DNA of 64,000 bases, taken from Polaromonas sp. (lineage in GTDB: Bacteria > Pseudomonadota > Gammaproteobacteria > Burkholderiales > Burkholderiaceae_C). The stretch is from contig NZ_JAQSDL010000085.1 in NCBI RefSeq assembly GCF_029945895.1, positions 1 through 64,000 of the forward strand. The letters run 5' to 3'. The notes under the pieces are model-generated. The model ran no database searches. It saw nothing but the letters and a program-made list of their open reading frames with translations, and was not told the origin of the DNA. Each line of letters begins with the position of its first letter. The stretch's first letter is position 1. This document shows, in pieces, positions 1 through 12,058 of this stretch. Position numbers and translations under genes: made by a program.

Positions 1-243
1 GACGGCTCCAAACTGACCGCCACGCAACTCGCCGTCGCGCCCAACATGGCCGGCAGCATCCCGCTGCAGCTCGTCAAGGGCAACCCCGCCATGGGCAACG
101 GCGCCATGCAGGGCGTCACCTACATCCAGCGCGTGGCCACGATGGGCGGCGTTGCACCGGCCACACCGTGCGCCGCCGGCAACCTGGGCGCCAGGCAAGT
201 CGTCAAGTACCAGGCCGACTACATCTTCTACAAGGCCATGTAA
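1..243 (+). CDS. DUF3455 family secreted protein, C-terminal part (5' end outside window)
   Basis: The open frame enters from the left edge and stops with TAA at 241-243, so only the last 80 codons are present. They align by eye with the C-terminal third of the complete DUF3455 protein at 1326-1919: a DGS start, a GVTYIQR segment matching NITYVQR, a TPC segment, and the shared end YxADYIF. DUF3455 proteins are small exported proteins of unknown function, common in proteobacteria and fungi. The two paralogues flank one unrelated secreted protein. Confidence 0.8.
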   Translation, partial: DGSKLTATQLAVAPNMAGSIPLQLVKGNPAMGNGAMQGVTYIQRVATMGGVAPATPCAAGNLGARQVVKYQADYIFYKAM

Positions 244-722
244 GCCCCGCGGTGCCGCAAGCTGAGCGTCATCGCGCGCCTGGACCGGCCATGTTTTCAC
301 CATGTTCTTTTAACCAGCTTCTCACTGGCATCCACAGTGGGAACACGCCCTGAATGGTGAGCGGCCGGCCTTCGCGTTTTGCGGGGTCGGCTTTGACAGC
401 CTGCAGGCCATCACAAGCGTGGTGGCCTGCAGGCTTTTTTGGTGCCTGCGTGACATTGCGTTGTTGGACCGCAGGCCCCGGGCGCGGCGTCCTACAGACG
501 CTTACACCTGTTGCAGCCGAAACTGGTGATCAGCCCCACCCAAGCATCCATCAGACCTGCCATGAAACGCCTTCCCGCCCATCCGCCCGGAAAAGCCTTG
601 TTCCATGGAAGCCCCTGTTCCACGCCGCGCTGTGCGCCGTACCGCGAAAGCGGCGGCTTCCTACAGGGCCCGGCGCGGGCCTGCGGTCTGATAGCCGAAT
701 CATCAGCAAGGAGTAACCTGTC
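244..722. other. Gene-poor stretch after the first DUF3455 gene
   Basis: No convincing gene is seen in these 479 bases; the short open frames lack ribosome binding sites and overlap one another. The stretch holds one strong terminator hairpin (398-440) and, at its right end, the ribosome binding site AAGGAG (about 708-713) for the gene at 723. Confidence 0.6.
398..440 (+). terminator. Rho-independent terminator
   Basis: A perfect 13-bp stem (AGCCTGCAGGCCA with TGGCCTGCAGGCT) around a 12-base loop is followed directly by a run of T. It lies about 155 bases beyond the stop of the left-edge gene and probably ends that transcript. Confidence 0.85.
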
Positions 723-1208
723 ATGAGAAACACGTACCATTTGTTTCGCGCGATCAGCCTGACCATCGGTCTGGCCCTTCTGGTGGTCACCGGCACGGCC
801 GCCATGATGGCCGCCTTTTCTTCAGGTCCTGCCTCGGCGCCCCGCGCTTATGGCCAGATGGTGCTCGCTCCCCTGCCTGAGGCCGCTCAAGCCTCAGGTC
901 AAGCCCTGTCACCCGCCGGTGACGACCACGTGTTGTACCAGCGCGTGGCCCGCGCCGACGGAACCCAGGCATGGGAACTGACGCCAGCCCCGCAAACCAC
1001 CGAAGCAACCGACAACCGCAGCAAGGCCGTCGTGGCCATGCGCCCCACCTTTGATGACCCGGGCTTCAGCCGCGTCAGCTACAGCCTGCAGGCCAAACCT
1101 GCCGGCTTCAGCAAGGCCCTGAAAAGCTGCACCCACGCCGTGATCGGCCAGGGCGCCAAGCTCAAAACCATGGGCGCGTATGACATTTCCTGCGCGAGCC
1201 TCGGCTAA
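723..1208 (+). CDS. Secreted protein of unknown function
   Basis: A 161-residue protein with an N-terminal hydrophobic segment (about residues 9-30) that looks like a signal peptide or membrane anchor, followed by an Ala/Pro-rich linker. The ATG at 723 follows AAGGAG at a normal distance. The C-terminal half contains two cysteines (in KSCTHA and DISCAS) that could form a disulphide in the periplasm. No family is recognised. It lies between two DUF3455 genes on the same strand. Confidence 0.7.
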   Translation: MRNTYHLFRAISLTIGLALLVVTGTAAMMAAFSSGPASAPRAYGQMVLAPLPEAAQASGQALSPAGDDHVLYQRVARADGTQAWELTPAPQTTEATDNRSKAVVAMRPTFDDPGFSRVSYSLQAKPAGFSKALKSCTHAVIGQGAKLKTMGAYDISCASLG

Positions 1209-1325
1209 AAAGACGCCTGCGCCGGTCGCGGACAGGACAACCAGGCTGGCGTGCGGGGGTTTCCCCGTACGGCGTCCCCCATGATCATGGGGTGTACTAG
1301 GGCAAACCCATACTCCGGAGCGTTC

Positions 1326-1919
1326 GTGCAAACAACTTCCCCCAGCCATGTCCCCCGCGGCCGCCTGTCGCGCCGTTTCGGCCTGCTTGTGCTCGTCGGC
1401 AGCGCAGCCCTGCTGGGGGCCTGCAGCCACCGCCCGCTCCAGCCCTACAACACCCAGCAGGATCTGCCCGAGGCGGTTCGGGTGCCAGACGGTTACCAGC
1501 CCGTGCTGGAAGCCACCAGCAATGGCACGCTGCTGTACGAATGCCAGGCCGTCAAACGCGCACCGTATGAATACGAGTGGCTCATGCGAAACGGCAGCGT
1601 GGACCTGACCGACACCTACGGCGCGGCCATCATGCACAAGCCCGGGGCACGCGCCAGCTGGGTCCACCGGGATGGCTCCAGCGTTACGGCCCGTGAATTT
1701 TCAGAAGTGCCCAACGGCATCAGCAGCCTGCCGCTGCAGCGCTACACCGCCCAGTCGTCCGGCGTGCCCGGGGTGTTGCACAACATCACCTACGTCCAGC
1801 GCCTGCGCACCGTGGGCGGCTGGATATCGACCACCCCTTGCACCTCGGCGCAGCTGGGCATGCGCATGACCGTGCCTTACGAGGCCGACTACATTTTCTG
1901 GCGCGCCAAAGGCTCCTGA
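1326..1919 (+). CDS. DUF3455 family lipoprotein
   Basis: 197 codons from a GTG start preceded by GGAG five bases upstream; the longer frame from 1251 has no good ribosome binding site. Residues about 12-35 form an Arg-rich n-region, a hydrophobic core and a lipobox (ALLGAC), so the product should be a lipoprotein anchored through its Cys. The mature part has the DUF3455 pattern: a VPDGYQPV start, LLYECQA, EYEW, WxxxDGSSV, and the end YEADYIF. The family has no assigned biochemical role. The partial gene at 1-243 is a paralogue. Confidence 0.85.
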   Translation: MQTTSPSHVPRGRLSRRFGLLVLVGSAALLGACSHRPLQPYNTQQDLPEAVRVPDGYQPVLEATSNGTLLYECQAVKRAPYEYEWLMRNGSVDLTDTYGAAIMHKPGARASWVHRDGSSVTAREFSEVPNGISSLPLQRYTAQSSGVPGVLHNITYVQRLRTVGGWISTTPCTSAQLGMRMTVPYEADYIFWRAKGS

Positions 1920-1953
1920 AACGCCGCCGCCAGCGCGGGGCCAAGCCGCCCAC

Positions 1954-1989
1954 AAAAAAGCCCGCAGATCTGAGCCTGCGGGCTTTTTT
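1954..1989. terminator. Bidirectional terminator between convergent genes
   Basis: AAAAAAGCCCGCAG and CTGCGGGCTTTTTT form a perfect stem around an eight-base loop. The A run on one side and T run on the other let it stop transcription from both the DUF3455 gene (plus) and the gene ending at 2014 (minus). Confidence 0.9.
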
Positions 1990-2013
1990 GATGGGGGGTG
2001 GCAAGTGGCGGGT

Positions 2014-2451
2014 TCAGCGGCCGTAGTAATAACCTGGCGCCTGGTTCTGCACGTAGTAACCACCCTGGCGATAGCCACCGCGGCGGTCGTCGTCACGGCC
2101 GTGATGGCCATGCCGCTTGTTCCAGCCATGGGGGCGGCCGTAATACACCGGTGCGGGCTGCACGTAGACAGGGCGCGGCTGGTAGTACACCGGCGCCGGC
2201 TGGTAATACACCGGTGCCGGTTGCACATACACAGGGCGGGGCTGCACATAAACCGGCTGCGAGTACACCGGGTAGGCATTGGTCACGCCGATCTGCGCGC
2301 CCGGAAGCACCACACCAACGGAAAACTGCACGTCGCTGCGGGCGTGCGCACCGCCGGCAAAACCCATGGCCGCAACGGCCAGGGCGGCGGCTGCGCCGGC
2401 CATCAACATCGGCTTGCGGGACGGTGCGGCTTGAAAGGTTGTCTTAAGCAT
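2014..2451 (-). CDS. Secreted Tyr/Pro-rich repeat protein
   Basis: 145 residues. The N-terminus has a positively charged stretch, a long Ala-rich hydrophobic segment and an AHA-R signal peptidase-like site near residue 38. The middle (about residues 60-105) is a run of short imperfect repeats built on PVYVQP and PVYYQP; the tail is rich in Gly, Tyr, Arg and His. Similar repeat proteins occur as uncharacterised exported proteins in betaproteobacteria. No catalytic motif is present. The gene is divergent from the glnS fusion, with 148 bases between the two starts. Confidence 0.75.
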   Translation of the reverse strand: MLKTTFQAAPSRKPMLMAGAAAALAVAAMGFAGGAHARSDVQFSVGVVLPGAQIGVTNAYPVYSQPVYVQPRPVYVQPAPVYYQPAPVYYQPRPVYVQPAPVYYGRPHGWNKRHGHHGRDDDRRGGYRQGGYYVQNQAPGYYYGR

Positions 2452-2586
2452 TGCTTTCTCCTTGAACTGGGCAGAAAAAGCCCATGAAGGTATTAAACGC
2501 GCCAGCCGGGTAACGGGCTACCGCACGCACAGTGAAGAGCGTAGCCAAAAGTAACGCCCACGAAGGGGCGACCAGTGGCAACACCC

Positions 2587-2592
2587 TAGAAT
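2587..2592 (+). promoter_or_regulatory. TAGAAT -10 element, probable leaderless start of the glnS fusion
   Basis: TAGAAT ends seven bases before the ATG at 2600, and no Shine-Dalgarno sequence is present. A transcript from this -10 element would begin at or within a base or two of the start codon. The same arrangement is seen at 14386, 15911 and 39850. Confidence 0.45.
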
Positions 2593-2599
2593 CAGCCTC

Positions 2600-5500
2600 A
2601 TGAACGCCCCTGCAGACAAAGAAACCCACAAACCCAGCAATTTCCTGCGCCAGATCATCGAACATGACCTGGCCGCCGGCACCTATTCCGGCCGCAAATG
2701 GGGCGGCAGCCCCGGCGACGCGGCCCACCACGCCGCCGGCCAGCCCGACCCGGCCAAAATCCGCCTGCGTTTTCCGCCCGAGCCCAACGGCTACCTGCAC
2801 GTCGGCCACGCCAAAAGCATCTGCCTGAACTTTGGCCTGGCGCGCGACTACGGCGGCGTCTGCCACCTGCGTTTTGACGACACCAACCCCGAAAAGGAAG
2901 ACACCGAATACGTTGACTCCATCAAGGACGCCGTGCAGTGGCTGGGTTTTGACTGGCACAACGGCAGCGAAAACAACCTCTACCAGGCCAGCGACTACTT
3001 CGACTTCATGTACCGCGCCGCCGAATATCTGATCGAGTCCGGCAACGCCTATGTGGACGAACAAAGCGCCGACGAGATGCGCCACAACCGCGGCGACTTC
3101 GTCAAACCCGGCACCAACAGCCCCTTCCGCGGCCGTACCCCGGCCGAGAATCTGGCGCGCTTTCGCGAGATGCGTGACGGCCAGCTGGCCGACGGCGCCG
3201 CCGTGCTGCGCGCAAAGATCGACATGGCCAGCCCCAACATCAACCTGCGCGACCCGGCCATCTACCGCATACGCCGCGCGCACCACCACAACACCGGCGA
3301 CAAATGGTGCATCTACCCGATGTACACCTATGCGCACCCGATCGAAGACGCACTGGAGCAGATCACCCACAGCATCTGCACGCTGGAGTTTGAAGACCAG
3401 CGCCCGTTTTACGACTGGCTGCTCGACAAGCTGGCTGAAGGCCAACTGATCGCCAGCCCGCATCCGCGCCAGTATGAATTTGCACGGCTCAACCTCACCT
3501 ATGTGCTGACCAGCAAACGCAAGCTTCGACTATTGGTTGAGGACGGGCACGTTAGCGGATGGGATGACCCTAGGATGCCCACGATTGTTGGAATGCGCAA
3601 GCGAGGCTACACGGCCGAGGCAATTAACCTATTCTGTCAGCGCATTGGTGTGACCAAAAGTGATTCTTGGATTGACTATGCAGTACTTGAACAAGCAGTC
3701 CGCGATGACTTGGAGGCCAAAACCGACCGGGTTATGGCTGTTTTCGATCCCCTCAAAATTGTTGTTACAAACCTACCCGACGACTGGAGCGACGTTTGCG
3801 TGGCACCAAGGAACCCCCACGATCCAACGGCGTTACCACGGACTTTCAGCTTTGGAAAAAATCTTTGGATAGAACGTGATGACTTTAGAAAAGTACAAGA
3901 GAAGGGTTTCTTCAGACTCTTCCCAGGCAACACAGTTAGGCTGAAATATGGACACGTTGTAAAGTGCACCGGATTTACAGTCGACTCCAATCAAAGAGTT
4001 TCCGAAGTGCAGGTTGAGTTGGTGCCTGATACGAAAAGTGGAACTAGCGGCGCAGACAAAGTGAAAGTCAAAAGCACTTTGAGTTGGGTTAACGCAAAGG
4101 ATGGGGAGGAAGTTGAGGTCAAGTTGTATGACCGACTGTTCATCTCAGAAAAACCAGAATCCAGCGTCGAGAACTTTATAGACGCACTGAACCCAAGATC
4201 GCTCTCCATTGTTCGTGGATTTATCGAAGCCGGATTTTCTTCTAAGTTAAGAACTTCCAAAGCCGTTCAAGTTGAACGGCATGGGTATTTTTTATTAGAC
4301 AACGATGACGGGAAAACTACCCTTTCACGAATCGTTTCACTCAAAGATTCTTGGACTAAAAAAGAAACAGTGATAGGGGACACAGTCGTGGAAGATCAAC
4401 TGGTACTTTCTGACCTGATTAACCGCTTGAGCAAGAATGGTGCATATGAGCTACCTGACATTGTTACCTCGAGCGCAGTCCATCTAACTGACCCTGTACA
4501 AAACTACGTTGACCCAGCTCTCTCCACTTTAAGAGCTGGTACGGAGCGCTCCCCAATTGCCGTCATCAGAGCACCGGGGGCAGTCGGAAAAACGTCTCTA
4601 GCAAAAGAGATTGCATACCGCACAAAAAGTCTCTATTGGAATGTGAGCGAGCTGGAGTTAGGCTCAAACGCCTTCGTAGGGACTTTGTTAGAAACAGTCG
4701 GAGATACACACGTTAGCGCTACGCTGGAAGCGCTTCGGACCGGGAAAGTGGCTCTCATATTCGATGCGTTCGACGAGGCGAATATTCGCTCAGGAATTTC
4801 AAAAATAGAAACGTTCATAGCCAAAATTGCTCAACGAACTTCAGAATCGCCAAACTTGGTCGTATTATTTTTTGCCCGAGGTGATACTGCCGATCAACTT
4901 GTGAATTACCTCGACGAGTTGGATTCTTTTCCATCAAATGTTCCGCTTTATGAAATCCAACACTTTGACCGTCAGCGTTCTTTAAAGTTTGTTTTGAACG
5001 GTGTCGGTCCAGCGCATGGCACGGGTGCTATCCGGGAAACCTTTACCGAGCTTGAGACTGGGTTTGCATCATCCATGGGAATTTTGGGAGACCCATGGAA
5101 TGACGATGGTTTTCGCTCATTTATGGGTTACGCACCGGTTTTACAAACAATTATTCGGTATATCGCGAGAACCCCTAACCTAGTCAAAAACTCACACTCG
5201 CTTCTTCCACACTCCAGCCTGAAAACCAGCCCATTGGAGTCAGTCTTTGAAGCTCTTCTAAGTCGTGAACAAAATAAAGCCATTGAAGCCCTGAAACCTA
5301 AATTTCAAACTGATGAGGCGAAGGCTTTCAACTGGGAAGCGGTGTACGCTCGGGATGAACAACTGGAGCGCTTGGCCGCCCTAGTACTTACAAGAGAAGA
5401 GGGGTTTGTCCCAGACTGCGTAGATTCATTCCCAGTCTGGTTAAAAGAAAAGTACATGGCAGCTACGACAGAATTTTTAGGGGAGCACGTCTTCCTGGAT

Positions 5501-6475
5501 GGACGTCAGTTTGTAGGTCCCGCATTTAGAGACTATGTTCTCGCTTGGTCGCTAAAACACGAACTGCTTTCGCAGGATGCCGAGAGGTATCTCGACGACG
5601 CAAAATTTGTTCCGAGTCAAGTATTGAGTCGTATGTACAAAGCATTCAAGGGCAATGGGTCGCGTAGCCATTTTGGATATTTGATTGAAGCCGAGCAATC
5701 TGCCAGCCGCCAAGCGAACCCTAGTGTCGCAATCGTTACTGACGAAAAATCGACTTCTCTTTTGATCGCAAATCAATTTTCAGAGGAAGACGGCGGATTT
5801 CTGATTAGGGCTGAAGACTCTGACCAACCCATACGCCTCGGAACTCGGTTTCAAAAATTGCTGATTAATGACAGTGGCACCATTTACTTGGGAAGGCATG
5901 GCGCAGAACTTCAGATTGGGGAATGCGACATCTCGGGAGCCAACATTGATATCGTGTCTGAAACATTTAGGATTCTGGCCACTGCACATGGCAACGAAAG
6001 CAACTGTTTTATTGACGCCCGGGAGACCTTGACAGTCGTACCGTCCGGCGGAAATGTGTTTCTAGGCTTAAAAGGAACACTGGAGATTCGATGCCCTAAC
6101 TCACTTCCATATCCATGGGAGCTTTACAAAGCGAAGTCTCCGAGTGGAACCGGTGGATCTATCACTGTTCAGGATGCATTTCATACCTTGGCGAGAATTG
6201 TTCATTGGTTCAAGAATACTGAAAGTACCGGGGAACTGGCTTGCTTTGAAGAACTAGTTAAAAGTCATATTTCCAAGAAAAACGACCTCCGATCAGAATT
6301 GCTTAACTATCTGCTGGCTCAGGGAGTACTGAGTCACAGGAGACCGTGGTTCATCGTAGATCCCCATCAAGCGGAGAAGGCTGGTATTAACTGGGCTTCG
6401 ATTAACAAAAGCGATCTAACGCCTAAGCTAAATACTTTCGTTGAAGGTTTTTTGAAGCATCGCAATCAAGGCTAA
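2600..6475 (+). CDS. glnS: Glutaminyl-tRNA synthetase fused to a NACHT/STAND-type NTPase
   Basis: 1291 residues, against about 550-600 for normal GlnRS. Residues 1 to ~589 are a complete class I GlnRS: PPEPNGYLHVGHA (HIGH motif, 67-70), the catalytic core, the KMSKS-type LTSKRK at 303-308, WDDPRMPT, and the anticodon-binding beta-barrels ending in LKDSWTKKE. After a short linker comes a P-loop ATPase: APGAVGKTS (658-666, a Walker A variant with Ala at the first Gly position) and ALIFDAFDE (718-726), a Walker B with the second acidic pair typical of NACHT/STAND ATPases, then LVVLFFARGD like a sensor-1 strand. Residues ~780-930 look helical, ~930-1090 beta-rich, and the last ~100 helical again; none of these is recognised. 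Up to codon 308 base use is GC-rich like the neighbours. From codon 309 (3524) to the stop it is clearly AT-richer, with CGA, CTA, TTG and GTT codons. It is presumably the cell's essential GlnRS. A defence or sensing role for the NTPase is inference. Confidence 0.9.
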   Translation: MNAPADKETHKPSNFLRQIIEHDLAAGTYSGRKWGGSPGDAAHHAAGQPDPAKIRLRFPPEPNGYLHVGHAKSICLNFGLARDYGGVCHLRFDDTNPEKEDTEYVDSIKDAVQWLGFDWHNGSENNLYQASDYFDFMYRAAEYLIESGNAYVDEQSADEMRHNRGDFVKPGTNSPFRGRTPAENLARFREMRDGQLADGAAVLRAKIDMASPNINLRDPAIYRIRRAHHHNTGDKWCIYPMYTYAHPIEDALEQITHSICTLEFEDQRPFYDWLLDKLAEGQLIASPHPRQYEFARLNLTYVLTSKRKLRLLVEDGHVSGWDDPRMPTIVGMRKRGYTAEAINLFCQRIGVTKSDSWIDYAVLEQAVRDDLEAKTDRVMAVFDPLKIVVTNLPDDWSDVCVAPRNPHDPTALPRTFSFGKNLWIERDDFRKVQEKGFFRLFPGNTVRLKYGHVVKCTGFTVDSNQRVSEVQVELVPDTKSGTSGADKVKVKSTLSWVNAKDGEEVEVKLYDRLFISEKPESSVENFIDALNPRSLSIVRGFIEAGFSSKLRTSKAVQVERHGYFLLDNDDGKTTLSRIVSLKDSWTKKETVIGDTVVEDQLVLSDLINRLSKNGAYELPDIVTSSAVHLTDPVQNYVDPALSTLRAGTERSPIAVIRAPGAVGKTSLAKEIAYRTKSLYWNVSELELGSNAFVGTLLETVGDTHVSATLEALRTGKVALIFDAFDEANIRSGISKIETFIAKIAQRTSESPNLVVLFFARGDTADQLVNYLDELDSFPSNVPLYEIQHFDRQRSLKFVLNGVGPAHGTGAIRETFTELETGFASSMGILGDPWNDDGFRSFMGYAPVLQTIIRYIARTPNLVKNSHSLLPHSSLKTSPLESVFEALLSREQNKAIEALKPKFQTDEAKAFNWEAVYARDEQLERLAALVLTREEGFVPDCVDSFPVWLKEKYMAATTEFLGEHVFLDGRQFVGPAFRDYVLAWSLKHELLSQDAERYLDDAKFVPSQVLSRMYKAFKGNGSRSHFGYLIEAEQSASRQANPSVAIVTDEKSTSLLIANQFSEEDGGFLIRAEDSDQPIRLGTRFQKLLINDSGTIYLGRHGAELQIGECDISGANIDIVSETFRILATAHGNESNCFIDARETLTVVPSGGNVFLGLKGTLEIRCPNSLPYPWELYKAKSPSGTGGSITVQDAFHTLARIVHWFKNTESTGELACFEELVKSHISKKNDLRSELLNYLLAQGVLSHRRPWFIVDPHQAEKAGINWASINKSDLTPKLNTFVEGFLKHRNQG

Positions 6476-6580
6476 TGGGGGCGCTCGACGAGGTTTCACG
6501 TTTGCCACCTGCGTTTATGGAAGCTAGGCAGCTCATTTTTAGATTTTTTTGTCCGATGATGAGCACGCCGGACACAGCCG

Positions 6581-6715
6581 ATGCTCGACTTCCTCGAAGA
6601 AGTCGCCTTCGTCGCATCCTCAGACTACGTCACGCCGAAGATGCTCAGCTACGCCGGTGTCAAGCGCGACGGTCACGATCGACCTCCCTCGGCTGACAGG
6701 CGCATGGTGACGTAA
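6581..6715 (+). pseudogene. Relic of a SAM-dependent methyltransferase N-terminus
   Basis: A 44-codon open frame starting MLDFLEEVAFV. Its sequence LEEVAFVASSDYVTPKML and SYAGVKR match position by position the LEEVPFITSP and MLTIAGVKRGDHVIDLG region of the broken methyltransferase at 7369-7721. The similarity stops just before the SAM-binding glycine loop, where the frame runs into unrelated residues. It is a truncated second copy of that family, not a working gene. Confidence 0.6.
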
Positions 6716-6752
6716 CCACCGAGCGGCCAAAGCCAAGCACCCTGCCATAGAG

Positions 6753-7194
6753 TCACTTCTTCTGAGAAATCAGCTCCGCCTTGTCCCGCACCAGGTTCGC
6801 AGAGATACCCGACTCCAGCAGGGTCTTGAGGTCACACAGCACGATGCTGAAACCTTCGGTCGCACCGACCGCTTCTGCCGCTTCCATGAACCCGCTAGCG
6901 ACCACGCTCACCACGGTAGCACCTGCCCCCTGTGGCTTGAAAGTCATCTCGACGTGGATGCCGTCGGACCAGTCGAACCCAAGCTGGTGCGCTGCTTCAA
7001 AATGCCGTGACAGTGACGGTGTGTTCAGCGCCGGGCACCATGAAGTGCCAAGTCACCGTTGCGCCCTGCCTGAGCGGGCCCGACGTTTTGGCCAGCCAGA
7101 ATTTGACAATGGTGTCGGGGTTCACGAAAGCGTCAAAACAGCGCTGAGCTGAACTGCGGATGAGCATCTCGGCCTTGGCATCGCATGTATTCAT
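6753..7194 (-). pseudogene. SRPBCC (AHSA1-like) protein broken by a frameshift
   Basis: The N-terminal part (start at 7194, MNTCDAKAEMLIRSS) reads into VTVTAF and then meets a stop at the run of four A at 6999-7002 (four T on the coding strand). Removing one base there joins it to EAAHQLGFDWSDGIHVEM and the remaining frame down to 6753, which ends with the AHSA1-type LCDLKTLLESG and NLVRDKAELI. Together they make a normal SRPBCC domain of about 147 residues. Either the gene is dead by a one-base insertion, or the base is a sequencing error. Confidence 0.75.
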
Positions 7195-7368
7195 ATCGGT
7201 CGCCTGTATCAAGAAAGCGGAAGCGTTGTTGGCACCCCCCTGTGCCATGAAAAATGATAGCCAAAGCGACCGCGCTGAGCATGACAGCGCAGAGCACGAC
7301 CCCGTCAGACCTCGCCTTGCCGAAGGCCGGCTGCGGCGCCAGCCAATCGGCAGCACAATATCCCGATG

Positions 7369-7721
7369 ATGCTGAAATCCAACCCTTCCCCAAAAATTGC
7401 AGCCCGATTTTTGCAGATGGCGATCGGCGCCGGTGTGGCCGTCTCCGCCCAAGCCCAACCCCTCGAAGAAGTCCCCTTCATCACCTCCCCGACAACGTCA
7501 CTCTGGAGATGTTGACTATCGCAGGCGTGAAGCGCGGCGACCATGTGATTGACCTCGGCTCGGGCGACGGGCGCATCGTGATCCTGGCGGCCAAACGTTT
7601 TGAAGCGACCGGCCTGGGTGTCGAGATTGACCCGTCGCTGGTGGAGAAAGCCAAGGCCAGTGCGCACAAGGCGGGGTTGGCGGACAAGACGGGAGCTAAG
7701 TGGCTGGAAGCCCGGCTGTAA
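7369..7721 (+). pseudogene. Exported class I methyltransferase, frameshifted and truncated
   Basis: From the ATG at 7369 the frame encodes a signal-peptide-like start (hydrophobic, ending VSAQAQ) and LEEVPFITSP, then slips by one base near 7487. The following frame continues with NVTLEMLTIAGVKRGDH, the SAM-binding motif VIDLGSGDGRIV, and GLGVEIDPSLVEKA, before stopping at ADKTGAKWLEARL. Family members continue for roughly 90 more residues, so the 3' end is missing as well. The upstream relic at 6581-6715 belongs to the same family. Confidence 0.75.
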
Positions 7722-7724
7722 TTT

Positions 7725-7783
7725 TGCTACTACATTGATAGCTGGTTGCGCTTGTTCCACGCGGGCTGCAACCTGATTCTGTT
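7725..7783 (+). repeat. Dispersed intergenic element, copy 1
   Basis: Matches the ~55-60 base element found eight times in the window: TTGCTAnnnnnTTGATAGCTGnTTGCGCnnG followed by a GGGCTGCA segment. It lies directly after the broken methyltransferase. Confidence 0.6.
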
Positions 7784-7826
7784 CACATACCTTCGCACAA
7801 CCCCACCCGCCCCCAAGGGCCTGCCC

Positions 7827-7854
7827 TCAAGTTTTGGGTGAAACCTGCCGATAT
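7827..7854 (+). promoter_or_regulatory. Sigma-28 (FliA) type promoter for the chemoreceptor
   Basis: TCAAGTTT (7827-7834), a 12-base spacer and GCCGATAT (7847-7854) match the flagellar consensus TAAAGTTT-N11-GCCGATAA with one mismatch in each box and one extra spacer base. Transcription would start about 190 bases before the ATG at 8056. Chemoreceptor genes are classic FliA targets. Confidence 0.65.
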
Positions 7855-8055
7855 GTACAGGGAGGTACCGGCCAGGCCGCAGCCCGGGCTGCCGGCGCGC
7901 TGGCGGGCTTCTGCGCCCAGCCGTGGGGGCCAGTGCGGGGGGAAGCTGTTGAAGTCCAGCGTGGCCCGCTTCCGCGGACTGGCACTGGCTGGGCGGCATT
8001 GACCGCGGCAGGTCCGTCACCGCTTTTTTTGTGAAATTCAAAAGAGAAAAACACC

Positions 8056-9762
8056 ATGAAACTCAGAACCAAGATGATTTCCGTGATGGCGCTGGTCTGC
8101 GCCTGTTTCACCTTGGCCATTGGTGTGGCGCTGGTGGGCATGCAGAACGCGAAAAGCCAGTTCGAGACCTTTCTGCAGCAGGACCAGGCCCTGCTTCAAG
8201 CCGGCAGCAATTTGTACGCCCAGGGTTTGCAGATGGGGCAGGCCTTGCGCAACATCGTGCTCGACCCGGCGAACAAGAAGGCCCAGGAAAACCTGGACGC
8301 TGCCAGCGACGAATTCAAGACCTCTTACCTAGCGGCGATGGCCCTTTCACGGCAGGATGCGGACACCTTGAGCATCCTGCAGAAAGTCGGCGATTTGCGT
8401 GAGAAGCAGGCGCTGCTCCAGAAGCAGATTGCCGGGCTCGCCCAGAGTGATGCCAGTGCCGCCAGCAGCCTGCTGAACACCGCAGAGACGCCGGTCTGGC
8501 GGGGCATGCGCGGGCATCTGCTGGAGTTCATCAAGGTAAAAAACGAGGCGGCCAAAACCACCGAAGCAGAACTGAGCCGGTTCACGCAGCAGATGCTGCT
8601 GATCAGTGTGGTCATGGCGTGTGTTGCCATTCTGCTGGGTGTCGGAATCACCTTCTGGCTGACCCGCGATGTGATGAAACAACTGGGCGGCGAGCCCGAC
8701 TACGCGGTGGCGATTGCCAGCAGCATTGCAGCCGGCGACCTGACGGTGGATGTGCAGACCCGCGCGGGTGATCAAACCAGCCTGTTGTTTGCGATGAAAC
8801 AGATGTGCAACAGCCTGGCCCGGGTGGTCGGCGAAGTCCGCAGCGGCACCGACACCATCGCCACGGCAAGCAGCCAGATCGCCGCCGGCAACCACGACCT
8901 CTCGTCCCGCACCGAAGAGCAGGCCAGCTCCCTGGAAGAGACCGCAGCGTCGATGGAAGAGCTGACGTCCACCGTCAAACAAAACGCCGACAACGCCCGC
9001 CAGGCCAACCAGCTGGCCGTCACCGCCTCCAGCGTTGCCGTCAAGGGCGGCAGCGTGGTCGCCGAAGTGGTCGGCACCATGGGCGCCATCAACGCCTCCT
9101 CCAGAAAGATCGTCGACATCATCGGCGTCATCGACGGCATCGCCTTCCAGACCAACATCCTCGCCCTGAACGCCGCCGTTGAAGCGGCTCGGGCCGGCGA
9201 GCAGGGAAGAGGCTTTGCCGTGGTTGCCGCAGAAGTCAGAAACCTCGCCCAGAGAAGTGCCGCAGCGGCCAAAGAGATCAAGACCCTGATAGGCGACTCC
9301 GTCGACAAAGTCGAAGAAGGCAGCAAACAGGTGGCCGAGGCCGGCAAGACCATGGACGAGATTGTGGACAGCGTCAAACGCGTGACCGACATCATGGCCG
9401 AGATCACGGCGGCCAGCCAGGAGCAGACCCAGGGCATCGAGCAGATCAACCAGGCGATCACGCAGATGGACCAGGTGACGCAGCAAAACGCTGCGCTGGT
9501 CGAAGAAGCCGCCGCCGCAGCGTCTTCGCTGCAGGAGCAGGCCAGCGGGCTCAGCCAGGTGGTGAGCGCCTTTCGGCTGAACCAGCAACATCAACAACAA
9601 CCCGGACAGGGCGATTCAGCACGCCGCACAAGCCACAGCCGCCCGCGTGAGAACCCCAGGCAGCCGCCCCGCGCCAAACAGGCCGTGGCTGCCCCGGTGC
9701 AGCGGCAGTTAAGCCATGCGGGTGGTCTGGCGACCGCGCAAGGGAGCTGGGAAACGTTTTAA
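8056..9762 (+). CDS. Methyl-accepting chemotaxis protein
   Basis: 568 residues. Membrane segment 1 lies at about 10-30, a helical periplasmic ligand-binding domain of four-helix-bundle type at 31-185, and membrane segment 2 at about 186-206. A HAMP domain and a long coiled-coil signalling domain follow. The highly conserved hairpin tip is clear ([35 protein letters not shown]). After the helices a flexible Gln/Pro/Arg-rich tail ends in GSWETF at the very C-terminus, the type of tether used to dock CheR (NWETF in E. coli receptors). The ligand cannot be told from sequence. A FliA-type promoter lies upstream; no other che gene is in the window. Confidence 0.95.
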
Positions 9763-9852
9763 GCGCTTCGCTGCAGGCTGGGAAACCCGCAACGCCCCCA
9801 CCCGGCGTGGCACGGCGCGGCGCGGCGGTTGTGCCTTTCGCCGGAAGAAAGA

Positions 9853-10599
9853 TCAGCCTTTTTTCTCAACCGGGTTGGCCGTCAGCCAATTCGCCGGATA
9901 AGCCCGCATGAACTCCCGGGCTTTCTCCGGGCGGGCGCCCAGCCAGGCGTCGTAAGCGCCTTCGTTCAATATCGCGACCATGCGTTTTTCGTTGCCGGGC
10001 TGCTGGTAGCGGCTCATCAGCGCGTGGCTGTTGGCGTTGACGGTGAGCAGGGTGTAGCTGATGATCACGTCGCCGTTTGCCCCCGTCCAGCTTTCCCACA
10101 GGCCCGCCACCCCCATGGGTTTGCCGTCTACCCGCGCGATGCGGGTGGACACGGCCTTGCCGCTGCGCCAGTCGTCTTCCATAAACGCCATCAGGGGCAC
10201 GATGCAGCGCTGACCGGCCAGCCAGGCGTCGCGGAAGTTGTTGGAGGTGGTCACGGTTTCCGAACGGGCATTGACCAGCTTGGTCGAACGCAGCTTGGCG
10301 TCTGACGCCGACTTGACCCAGCGCGGCACCAGGCCAAACTGCCCGGCGACCAGCTCACGCACCGGCGCCTCACGCGCAGGCTGGTCTGCGTCTGCGCCCT
10401 CTTCGCTCTTTGCAGCTTCTGTGGCTTCTGTGGCTTCTGTGGCCTCTGCGGCTTCCTGCGCCTCGGCGGCCAGGGCCGCGCGGATAAAAACACCCGGCTG
10501 GCGCGGCCACACGGCACGCCCCACAGGCACAAGCGGGGCGGGCACATGGAAGGCGTCGGGGTAAAGCGCGGTTTGAACGCTTTCGTAATAGGTACTCAT
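9853..10599 (-). CDS. SRAP (SOS response-associated peptidase, YedK/HMCES) family protein with Ser at position 2
   Basis: 248 residues. SRAP proteins cap abasic sites in single-stranded DNA through a thiazolidine made by Cys2, exposed after Met removal. Here the start reads MSTYYESV, so position 2 is Ser; an in-frame stop lies a few codons upstream, so no longer start supplies a Cys. The other active-site residues appear kept: Asn110 (VNARSE), Glu141 (AFMEDDW) and His192 (NSHALM), with spacing like YedK Asn75, Glu105 and His160. Residues ~42-78 are a low-complexity Ala/Glu/Thr insert encoded by 9-bp tandem repeats. It may be an inactive or altered SRAP. Confidence 0.85.
   Translation of the reverse strand: MSTYYESVQTALYPDAFHVPAPLVPVGRAVWPRQPGVFIRAALAAEAQEAAEATEATEATEAAKSEEGADADQPAREAPVRELVAGQFGLVPRWVKSASDAKLRSTKLVNARSETVTTSNNFRDAWLAGQRCIVPLMAFMEDDWRSGKAVSTRIARVDGKPMGVAGLWESWTGANGDVIISYTLLTVNANSHALMSRYQQPGNEKRMVAILNEGAYDAWLGARPEKAREFMRAYPANWLTANPVEKKG
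10415..10450. repeat. Nine-base tandem repeat inside the SRAP gene
   Basis: Three exact copies of GCTTCTGTG and a fourth with two changes lie head to tail. On the coding (minus) strand they encode repeated Glu-Ala-Thr. Slippage here would change the linker length by three residues at a time without shifting the frame. Confidence 0.85.
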
Positions 10600-10776
10600 G
10601 CGGCGATGCTATCGCACAGCAGCGCCTGGCAGCCGCGCACTGCCTCCACGCGCAGGCCAATTACAAGTTGGCGTCCTTCGCCGACATACAAGGCCGCAGC
10701 GGACAGGTAACATGTTTCAAGGCCGCGTCACACACGGCAGCTCAAGCCACCCATTCAATTCATCCAGGAGATTGCC

Positions 10777-10995
10777 ATGCCCCAGTTCGCCATGATTACC
10801 GGTGACGTGACTTACACACCGGGTGACGGTGCACCCATCACGATTCCGCAGGTTCGCGTTGAAGTAGCGCTGTCTTTCGACAGCGCCACCCTGAGCTGGG
10901 AAGACGCCCCGGGCATCGTCGGCCTGACGGCCATTCCCATCACGCAGTTTGATGACTATGTGACAGACGGAAAGATCACCTGGATACCGGAATAA
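10777..10995 (+). CDS. Small conserved-looking cytoplasmic protein
   Basis: 72 residues, ATG preceded by CAGGAG at a good distance. There is no signal peptide or membrane segment. The sequence alternates hydrophobic and polar residues in short strands (VRVEVALSF, ATLSWED, GIVGLTAIPITQF), suggesting a small beta-rich fold. No family is recognised. It ends 29 bases before the GTG of the M23 peptidase and may share its transcript. Confidence 0.65.
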   Translation: MPQFAMITGDVTYTPGDGAPITIPQVRVEVALSFDSATLSWEDAPGIVGLTAIPITQFDDYVTDGKITWIPE

Positions 10996-11024
10996 ACCAG
11001 CAAGCAAGCCCTGCCTCCCGTACC

Positions 11025-11972
11025 GTGACCACCCGCTTTTTTCAGCCCACCTCCGCGCCTTCTCCCGCGCCCTCCCACACGCTTTCCGACACGCCTCTCA
11101 CCCGCCGCTGTGCCCTGCTGGCCGGCGCGGGTTTGCTGGCGTGGCCGGCGGCCCGCCTTGCCGCGGCACCTGCCTCGCCATCGCCATCGCCGTCATCTTC
11201 TGGCGTCTGGCCGCGTGCGCTGGCCGTGCCCGGCGGTGTGGCCCGGCTCTCGCTGGGTCCGGCAGGGGTGCGGCCGGTGGCGCATCTGCGGCTCGCTGAT
11301 GGCGACGTGCCGCTGCTGGTGGTGGGCGACGTGATCGAGTGGACGGCGCTGGTGGGCATTGCGCTGTCGGCTGCGCCCGGCGAAGCCAGCATTGCCGTGC
11401 AGGCGCCCGAGGGCGGCCAGCACGCGCTGAGTTATGCGGTGGCGGCCAAACGCTACAGCGAGCAGCAACTCAAGGTCTCGCCGCGCACGGTGGACCTGTC
11501 GCCGGAGGACCTGGCGCGTTACGAGCGCGAGCGCGCGCACCAGGCGTTGGTGATGGCCACCTTCAGCCAGCCCCTGCCGCAGACCCTGCGCATGCAGGTG
11601 CCCACGCCGGGGCGGCGCTCCAGCTCCTTCGGCTTGCGGCGCGTGTTCAACGGGCAGGCACGCAGCCCGCACAGCGGCATGGACATTGCGGCCGGCACGG
11701 GCACCCCCGTGCTGGCGCCGCTGCCAAGCCGGGTGATCGACATCGGCGACTACTTTTTCAACGGCAACACCGTCTGGCTGGACCACGGCGGCGGCCTGCT
11801 GAGCATGGTCTGCCACCTGAGCGCCATCGACGTGCAGCCGGGCGATGTGCTGAAAACCGGCGAACGCGTGGGCGCCGTGGGTGCCACCGGCCGCGTGACG
11901 GGGCCGCACCTGCACTGGGGCGTGATGCTGAACCGAACCATGGTGGACCCGGCGCTGTTTCTGCCCGCCTGA
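11025..11972 (+). CDS. M23 family (LytM-type) peptidoglycan endopeptidase, exported
   Basis: 315 residues from a GTG start. Residues ~25-50 carry a Tat-like or Sec signal (TRRCALLAGAGLLAW and an Ala-rich end), so it acts in the periplasm. The C-terminal third is a peptidase M23 domain with the zinc and catalytic motifs: SSFGLRRVFNG, HSGMDIA (HxxxD) and GPHLHWGV (HxH). M23 enzymes cut peptide cross-links of peptidoglycan; all metal ligands are present, so it should be active. The N-terminal ~150 residues form a beta-rich domain seen in many proteobacterial M23 proteins. Confidence 0.92.
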   Translation: MTTRFFQPTSAPSPAPSHTLSDTPLTRRCALLAGAGLLAWPAARLAAAPASPSPSPSSSGVWPRALAVPGGVARLSLGPAGVRPVAHLRLADGDVPLLVVGDVIEWTALVGIALSAAPGEASIAVQAPEGGQHALSYAVAAKRYSEQQLKVSPRTVDLSPEDLARYERERAHQALVMATFSQPLPQTLRMQVPTPGRRSSSFGLRRVFNGQARSPHSGMDIAAGTGTPVLAPLPSRVIDIGDYFFNGNTVWLDHGGGLLSMVCHLSAIDVQPGDVLKTGERVGAVGATGRVTGPHLHWGVMLNRTMVDPALFLPA

Positions 11973-11991
11973 GGCGCGGCGCAGCCACCCC

Positions 11992-12058
11992 CGTTCGCCC
12001 TGAGCTTGTCGAAGGGTAGCCACCATGCCAACAGGCTTCACAGGCTCAGCCCGAACGG
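11992..12058. repeat. REP-like extragenic palindrome
   Basis: GTTCGCCCTGAGCTTGTCGA (11992-12011, continuing AGGG) is the widespread proteobacterial extragenic repeat. A degenerate inverted partner (TTCACAGGCTCAGCCCGAAC) follows at about 12037-12056, so RNA from here can fold into a long imperfect hairpin beyond the M23 gene. Confidence 0.7.

What the first reader, a model, noticed from the sequence alone, without database searches (positions are those of the whole stretch)
2600..6475. Essential glutaminyl-tRNA synthetase fused in frame to a NACHT/STAND-type NTPase
Seen: one 1291-residue frame contains a complete GlnRS (HIGH at 67-70, KMSKS-type at 303-308, full anticodon domain to ~589), then an ATPase core with APGAVGKTS (658-666) and ALIFDAFDE (718-726), then ~500 unrecognised residues. 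Known: STAND/NACHT ATPases are frequent cores of bacterial antiphage and signalling proteins, where N-terminal effectors and C-terminal sensors vary; a GlnRS in the effector position is not an arrangement I recognise. Inference: the module may guard or tune glutaminylation, for example sensing a phage attack on GlnRS or shutting off translation when triggered. Fusion to an essential enzyme would also make the module hard to lose.
Basis: partly seen in the sequence, partly recalled or inferred. Interest (0 to 1): 0.95.

Follow-up and report, generated by a model that had tools for sequence, protein, structure and literature searches.

The report
tRNA synthetase fused to immune ATPase
In this bacterium the only glutamine-tRNA-charging gene found in its assembly has an apparently foreign second half that runs in frame into a NACHT ATPase, a type of protein predicted to act in defence against viruses; relatives repeatedly carry toxin-type and defence-type genes right behind the same gene, so such genes likely hold their place by attaching themselves to an essential enzyme.

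The parts
2600..6475 (+). GlnRS-NACHT fusion ORF, 1291 aa
2600..3439 (+). host-like 5' part of glnS, codons 1-280
   Evidence: 92.5% identical to G017, GC3 0.839
3440..3589 (+). zone where host-like sequence gives way to foreign-looking sequence, codons 281-330, KMSKS-type motif inside
   Evidence: DNA identity to G017 falls from 0.88-0.97 to below 0.7 between about 3440 and 3740; GC3 0.64
3590..4360 (+). foreign-looking 3' half of glnS, codons 331-587, anticodon-binding domains
   Evidence: 54.0% to G017 over 331-590, GC3 0.458; Pfam PF03950 and PF20974
4361..4399 (+). junction, residues 588-600; GTG codons at residues 591 and 597 are possible old starts of the cargo
4442..5683 (+). NACHT region (about residues 615-1028) with P-loop 658-666 (4571-4597) and Walker B 718-726 (4751-4777)
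   Evidence: model range 27-440 matches NLRP3 NACHT; motifs
5684..6472 (+). C-terminal region: beta-rich part, then winged-helix-like tail (residues 1029-1291), presumed sensor
6476..8055 (.). stretch between fusion stop and right flank; two pieces match G017 or G068 downstream DNA; no glnS remnant found
8056..11972 (.). right flank shared with relatives: MCP gene 8056-9762 (+), SRAP gene 9853-10599 (-), M23 peptidase gene 11025-11972 (+)
   Evidence: Pfam; synteny

Best explanation
The ORF is a glutaminyl-tRNA synthetase whose second half is apparently foreign DNA that runs in frame into a NACHT-type ATPase, and it most likely arose when a defence cassette carrying its own glnS 3' end recombined into the host glnS. 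Step by step. (a) Shown: glnS is mosaic, its 3' half and the NACHT share one composition, and this is the only glnS found. (b) Shown in relatives: the slot behind glnS holds changing toxin-, abortive-infection-, restriction- and ATPase-type genes, in some genomes with displaced glnS 3' ends between or behind them; in the second fusion (L032) a displaced glnS 3' end lies about 150 bp behind the NACHT stop. (c) Inferred: units made of a glnS 3' end plus cargo enter by homologous recombination in glnS, so that GlnRS keeps a working end and the cargo comes under glnS expression. (d) Inferred: in the two fusions the glnS stop was lost and the cargo is now made as a GlnRS tail, so losing the cassette would threaten the enzyme. 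(e) Predicted, untested: GlnRS stays an ordinary enzyme, and the NACHT works as its stand-alone relatives would, as an ATP-driven switch that oligomerises when its C-terminal region senses a trigger, probably phage infection.
For: Mosaic: identity to G017 92.5% (codons 1-280) against 54.0% (331-590); GC3 0.839, 0.458, and 0.448 for the NACHT. Second fusion L032, with displaced glnS end and as the only GlnRS found there. Displaced 3' pieces behind glnS in 12 of 73 genus genomes with a hit, own genome counted, and in 7 of 281 other family genomes with a hit. Control on 41 sources: 11 of 30 glnS genes against 1 of 165 other ORFs of at least 280 aa. 36 of 41 loci have an ORF at the glnS stop, 10 of them overlapping it; 26 of the 36 reach a Pfam cut-off. 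Closest syntenic relative G033 has PDC-M38A-like and Mrr genes in the same slot.
Against: No displaced glnS end was found in the window itself. No recombinase among 50 hotspot ORFs scanned and no boundary motif, so entry by homologous recombination is by elimination. No free cassette and no close donor (best listed identity 56%). In G061 the working 3' end is closer to the G017 gene (95%) than its remnants are (84-85%), so there the newcomer seems not to have supplied the working end. The window protein has no PADLOC match. GatB is present in two contig pieces, so GlnRS may not be strictly essential.
Confidence: 0.6

Rival explanations
1. GlnRS is a working part of the sensor: either its effector (NACHT oligomerisation on infection blocks GlnRS and stops translation) or a guarded target (attack on GlnRS or on tRNA-Gln charging triggers the NACHT).
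For: GlnRS sits where NACHT proteins usually carry an effector (PMC12169576, passages read). The fusion occurs twice. One related stand-alone NACHT gene (L034) lies 21 bp upstream of proS, another aminoacyl-tRNA synthetase gene.
Against: 48 of 49 related loci have no GlnRS, and 43 of them are full-size NACHT proteins without it. The proS neighbour is a single case and may be chance. Other unrelated cargos sit at the same place.
Confidence: 0.2
2. Loss of the glnS stop is a neutral accident that joined GlnRS to a downstream cargo; the NACHT is a passenger with no selected link and perhaps no function.
For: Cargo starts in this hotspot often overlap the glnS stop (10 of 36), so a small indel would fuse them. 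The sister relation of the two NACHTs is not secure, so the fusions may be independent.
Against: The NACHT frame is open over 700 codons with intact Walker motifs in both fusions, which suggests selection. In L032 no ATG or GTG lies between the GlnRS end and residue 647.
Confidence: 0.14
3. Assembly or binning artefact: a foreign contig end joined to the host glnS.
For: 122 contigs; GC changes sharply inside the gene.
Against: Same architecture in another assembly; DNA on both sides of the block matches congeners in order; the frame is intact across the break.
Confidence: 0.03

Closest known systems
Bacterial NACHT (bNACHT, NLR-related STAND) defence proteins (PMC12169576, passages read)
   Same: NACHT core by predicted structure; per that paper, clade 14 members defend without a readily discernible effector domain, like the stand-alone relatives here
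   Different: a complete GlnRS at the N-terminus; no Pfam NACHT match over cut-off; defence untested
Core defence hotspots cDHS1/2 of Pseudomonas aeruginosa (PMC10250203, passages read)
   Same: changing defence genes between conserved core genes
   Different: small slot directly at the stop of a protein-coding gene, with serial displaced 3' ends of that gene; no tRNA or tmRNA gene at the site in the window
Islands that integrate in a gene's 3' end and supply a new end, such as e14 in icd or SCCmec in rlmH (recalled, no call)
   Same: newcomer brings part of the host gene and displaces the old end
   Different: no recombinase or short attachment site seen; remnants of varied length (about 30-120 residues) at 70-93% DNA identity; many small unrelated cargos
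GlnRS/YqeY fusion proteins (NF011291)
   Same: C-terminal extension of GlnRS; this NCBIfam model is the best-scoring one for the GlnRS part
   Different: no YqeY domain here; a NACHT of about 700 residues instead

Membership tests
Glutaminyl-tRNA synthetase | full catalytic and anticodon-binding domains, equivalog score | tested here: met
   TIGR00440 651.9 against 425.8; aligned over residues 53-587 to E. coli GlnRS
Glutaminyl-tRNA synthetase | charges tRNA-Gln in vivo | not testable with these tools
   only GlnRS found in the assembly; GatB present
NACHT / STAND NTPase | P-loop and NACHT-type Walker B acidic motif | tested here: met
   APGAVGKTS 658, ALIFDAFDE 718; conserved in 40 rows
NACHT / STAND NTPase | NACHT fold | tested here: met
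NACHT / STAND NTPase | Pfam NACHT profile over its cut-off | tested here: inconclusive
   no listed match for the window; sub-threshold matches in relatives P0002, P0130, P0007
Bacterial NACHT defence protein | effector - NACHT - sensor order | tested here: inconclusive
   GlnRS at the effector place, uncharacterised C-terminal region; relatives lack an N-terminal domain
Bacterial NACHT defence protein | protects against phage | not testable with these tools
   no experiment; no PADLOC match
Core-gene defence hotspot | conserved flanking genes with changing defence cargo | tested here: met
   glnS left, M23 gene found to the right in 17 of 40 loci; cargo
Integrase-driven island in a gene 3' end | recombinase gene and short repeated attachment site | tested here: inconclusive
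   none among 50 hotspot ORFs scanned; no shared motif before 18 remnants; not every ORF was scanned

The most novel reading that the evidence does not exclude
The 3' end of glnS in this bacterial family is an integrase-free cassette array: portable glnS 3' ends act as homology arms that load one defence or toxin-antitoxin unit after another into an essential gene, newcomers often supplying the working end of the enzyme. GlnRS-NACHT is its end state, an immune sensor and an essential enzyme in one polypeptide that cannot be lost without losing glutamine charging.
Probability: 0.45. Interest if true: 0.87.

Novelty: new variant of a known kind. Interest (0 to 1): 0.75.

Why it matters
It suggests how small defence and toxin genes could move and persist without an integrase: by carrying the end of a gene that the host can hardly do without. 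The glnS 3' end becomes a place to look for new defence genes across a large bacterial family, and the two fusions make it directly testable whether a NACHT sensor uses, guards or merely rides on a housekeeping enzyme.

Tried and rejected
Assembly join: rejected, since another genome has the same fusion. Second glnS: none found. GlnRS-YqeY fusion: no YqeY domain. Fused relatives in protein data: none of the 6 and 15 hits, which are 714-745 aa (candidates capped near 8000). Of 4057 long GlnRS hits 120 were listed and I read five sequences; none of the five has a NACHT, and P0008 is an internally duplicated GlnRS. Plasmids and phages: the 3' half matches GlnRS there below 60% only; the NACHT has 3 weak plasmid matches and no phage match. 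Donor of the 3' half: not found, best listed identity 56% in a draw of 300 genomes of the order. Sisterhood of the two NACHTs: support 90 (67 rows) and 87/93 (22 rows) with long branches; without L032 the window row joins L035, without the window L032 is unresolved, so left open. Boundary motif: not above control positions. Long open frames around glnS in G274, G134 and G356 looked like more fusions; in the fetched stretches G274's extension is upstream of GlnRS, and none of the three showed a downstream fusion. The G029 'split' glnS is two contig ends. C-terminal fold: no clear match. Rfam: nothing in 1-12000. Literature: searches of the held library listed no title or abstract start on a GlnRS-NACHT fusion or a glnS defence hotspot; only listings were seen, except passages of PMC12169576 and PMC10250203.

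Full report

The gene is a mosaic. GC falls from about 0.65 to 0.45 inside glnS, at about 3450-3700, and rises again behind the stop. GC3 is 0.839 for codons 1-280, 0.458 for 331-590 and 0.448 for the NACHT; three neighbouring genes have 0.78-0.87. Against the GlnRS of G017, residues 1-280 are 92.5% identical and 331-590 54.0%. In 29 glnS loci fetched from relatives (55 of 61 genomes searched, own included, had a hit) the 3' half reaches 44-53% in tblastn. In a draw of 300 genomes of the order the best listed identity is 56%; 8 of the first 12 foreign rows belong to one other family of the order. The donor is unknown.

A second fusion. A pattern-based scan of one genome for each of 84,980 species gave 47 loci with the NACHT module, and viral contigs gave 2. 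Of the 49 ORFs, 43 are 675-788 aa without GlnRS, 5 are fragments, and one, L032 (RXJQ01000012.1, MAG Burkholderiales bacterium AWTP1-19), is a 1305-aa GlnRS-NACHT, 47% identical to the window protein over its length; GlnRS is 66.6% identical, the NACHT about 30%. It is the only GlnRS found in its genome. In L032 the whole GlnRS is host-like and GC3 drops at the junction (0.833 to 0.457). The first ATG or GTG after its GlnRS end is at residue 647; two TTG codons lie at 614 and 626. The window has GTG at 591 and 597. Two searches of 5.8 billion proteins gave 6 and 15 relatives, none fused. Among 399 genomes of the family only the window genome and G068 hit the NACHT. G068's is stand-alone and lies in a stretch identical over 4983 bp to Polaromonas sp. 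A23, which suggests that the window's genus is Polaromonas.

The hotspot. The G017 GlnRS C-half matched in 73 of 87 genus genomes, own included. Twelve of them carry one or more further 3' pieces behind glnS on the same strand: G008 (4), G061 (2), G032 (2), G017, G028, G029, G036, G070, G075, G081, G083, G093. Split or contig-end cases (G012, G018, G106) were left out. In the family draw 285 of 299 genomes matched, 4 of them of the genus or own. Of the other 281, 18 had two or more matches, and 7 of these (G125, G137, G173, G255, G316, G329, G338) have a piece 0.4-1.2 kb downstream on the same strand; in G137 and G255 it does not reach the gene end. The other 11 are second full copies, split genes or pieces on another contig. 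L032 has a displaced end about 150 bp behind its NACHT stop. The 18 remnants compared are 70-93% identical in DNA to the working 3' end and stop within 15 bases of its end. As a control on 40 fetched loci and the window, 11 of 30 glnS genes but 1 of 165 other mechanically called ORFs of at least 280 aa have such a 3' piece. These loci were partly chosen for their remnants, so the genus frequency is the one.

The cargo. In 41 loci, 36 have a same-strand ORF of at least 70 aa starting from 15 bp before to 150 bp behind the glnS stop; 10 start before the stop ends (7 by 13 bp). All 36 were scanned with Pfam. 26 reach a curated cut-off (one exactly): 13 in toxin or antitoxin families (Gp49, RelE, Zeta, Unstab_antitox, an AbiEii-like nucleotidyltransferase), 5 DUF4258, 2 AIPR, and one each of DndB, MethyltransfD12, DUF4357, PLD, AAA_15 and an ORC-CDC6-like ATPase. 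Ten do not: L082, L093, L094, L099, L136, L142, L146, L149, L150, L171. PADLOC matches PDC-M38A for L094, and AriA/OLD, PDC-S49, ThsA-type SIR2, NsnA and type IIG for further cargos. In G033, syntenic with the window at about 86% DNA identity on both sides, the slot holds the PDC-M38A-like and Mrr genes. An M23 gene like that of the window lies to the right in 17 of 40 loci.

Mechanism. Shown: mosaic gene, single glnS, recurrent displaced 3' ends, defence- and toxin-type cargo, a second fusion with a displaced end. Inferred: units of glnS 3' end plus cargo recombine into glnS, the crossover point deciding whether the working end is old or new; in the window it lies far upstream, near codons 281-330. 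Cargo starts that overlap the glnS stop would make an in-frame fusion a matter of a small indel. Predicted: the NACHT works like its stand-alone relatives, as a switch in defence, and fusion mainly secures expression and retention. GlnRS as effector or guarded target stays open at about 0.2; the proS gene 21 bp behind the stand-alone NACHT of L034 is its one hint from outside the fusions.

Limits and results against. Two MAG-type genomes; no displaced end in the window; no recombinase, boundary motif or free cassette seen; in G061 the working end, not the remnants, is the one close to congeners; tree placement of the fused NACHTs is unsure; GatB is present, so essentiality of GlnRS is likely but not shown; no expression or phage data.

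Noticed in passing
L034:3963-7937: In an Anaerolineae MAG a stand-alone NACHT relative (GC about 0.50) lies 21 bp upstream of a full-length, host-like proS, the only full match to that ProRS found in its genome.
   Followed up: partly
plasmid and phage records H1-H42: Whole GlnRS-like genes occur on plasmids of Comamonas, Cupriavidus, Achromobacter and 90 Escherichia records, and in phage D6; six family genomes have a second full-length glnS (G120, G292, G321, G334, G339, G384).
   Followed up: no
L091, L092, L093, L094 (G025, G026, G004, G033): GlnRS of these close relatives has an insertion of about 100 residues after residue 280, near where the window's glnS changes origin.
   Followed up: no
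L150:6632-7505: A GIY-YIG/DUF4357-like cargo gene in G067 has a 3' remnant of its own downstream, the only non-glnS case in the control.
   Followed up: no
window 6592-6710 and 7442-7688: Two pieces behind the fusion match one downstream region of G017 (the second also G068); by sight they resemble methyltransferase gene remnants, perhaps scars of earlier changes in the slot.
   Followed up: no
L079 and L080: Two IMG/VR viral contigs carry stand-alone relatives of the NACHT among genes that look phage-like by sight.
   Followed up: no
G000:C77:18214-18792 and G000:C41:3-323: GatB is present in the window's genome as two contig pieces.
   Followed up: no
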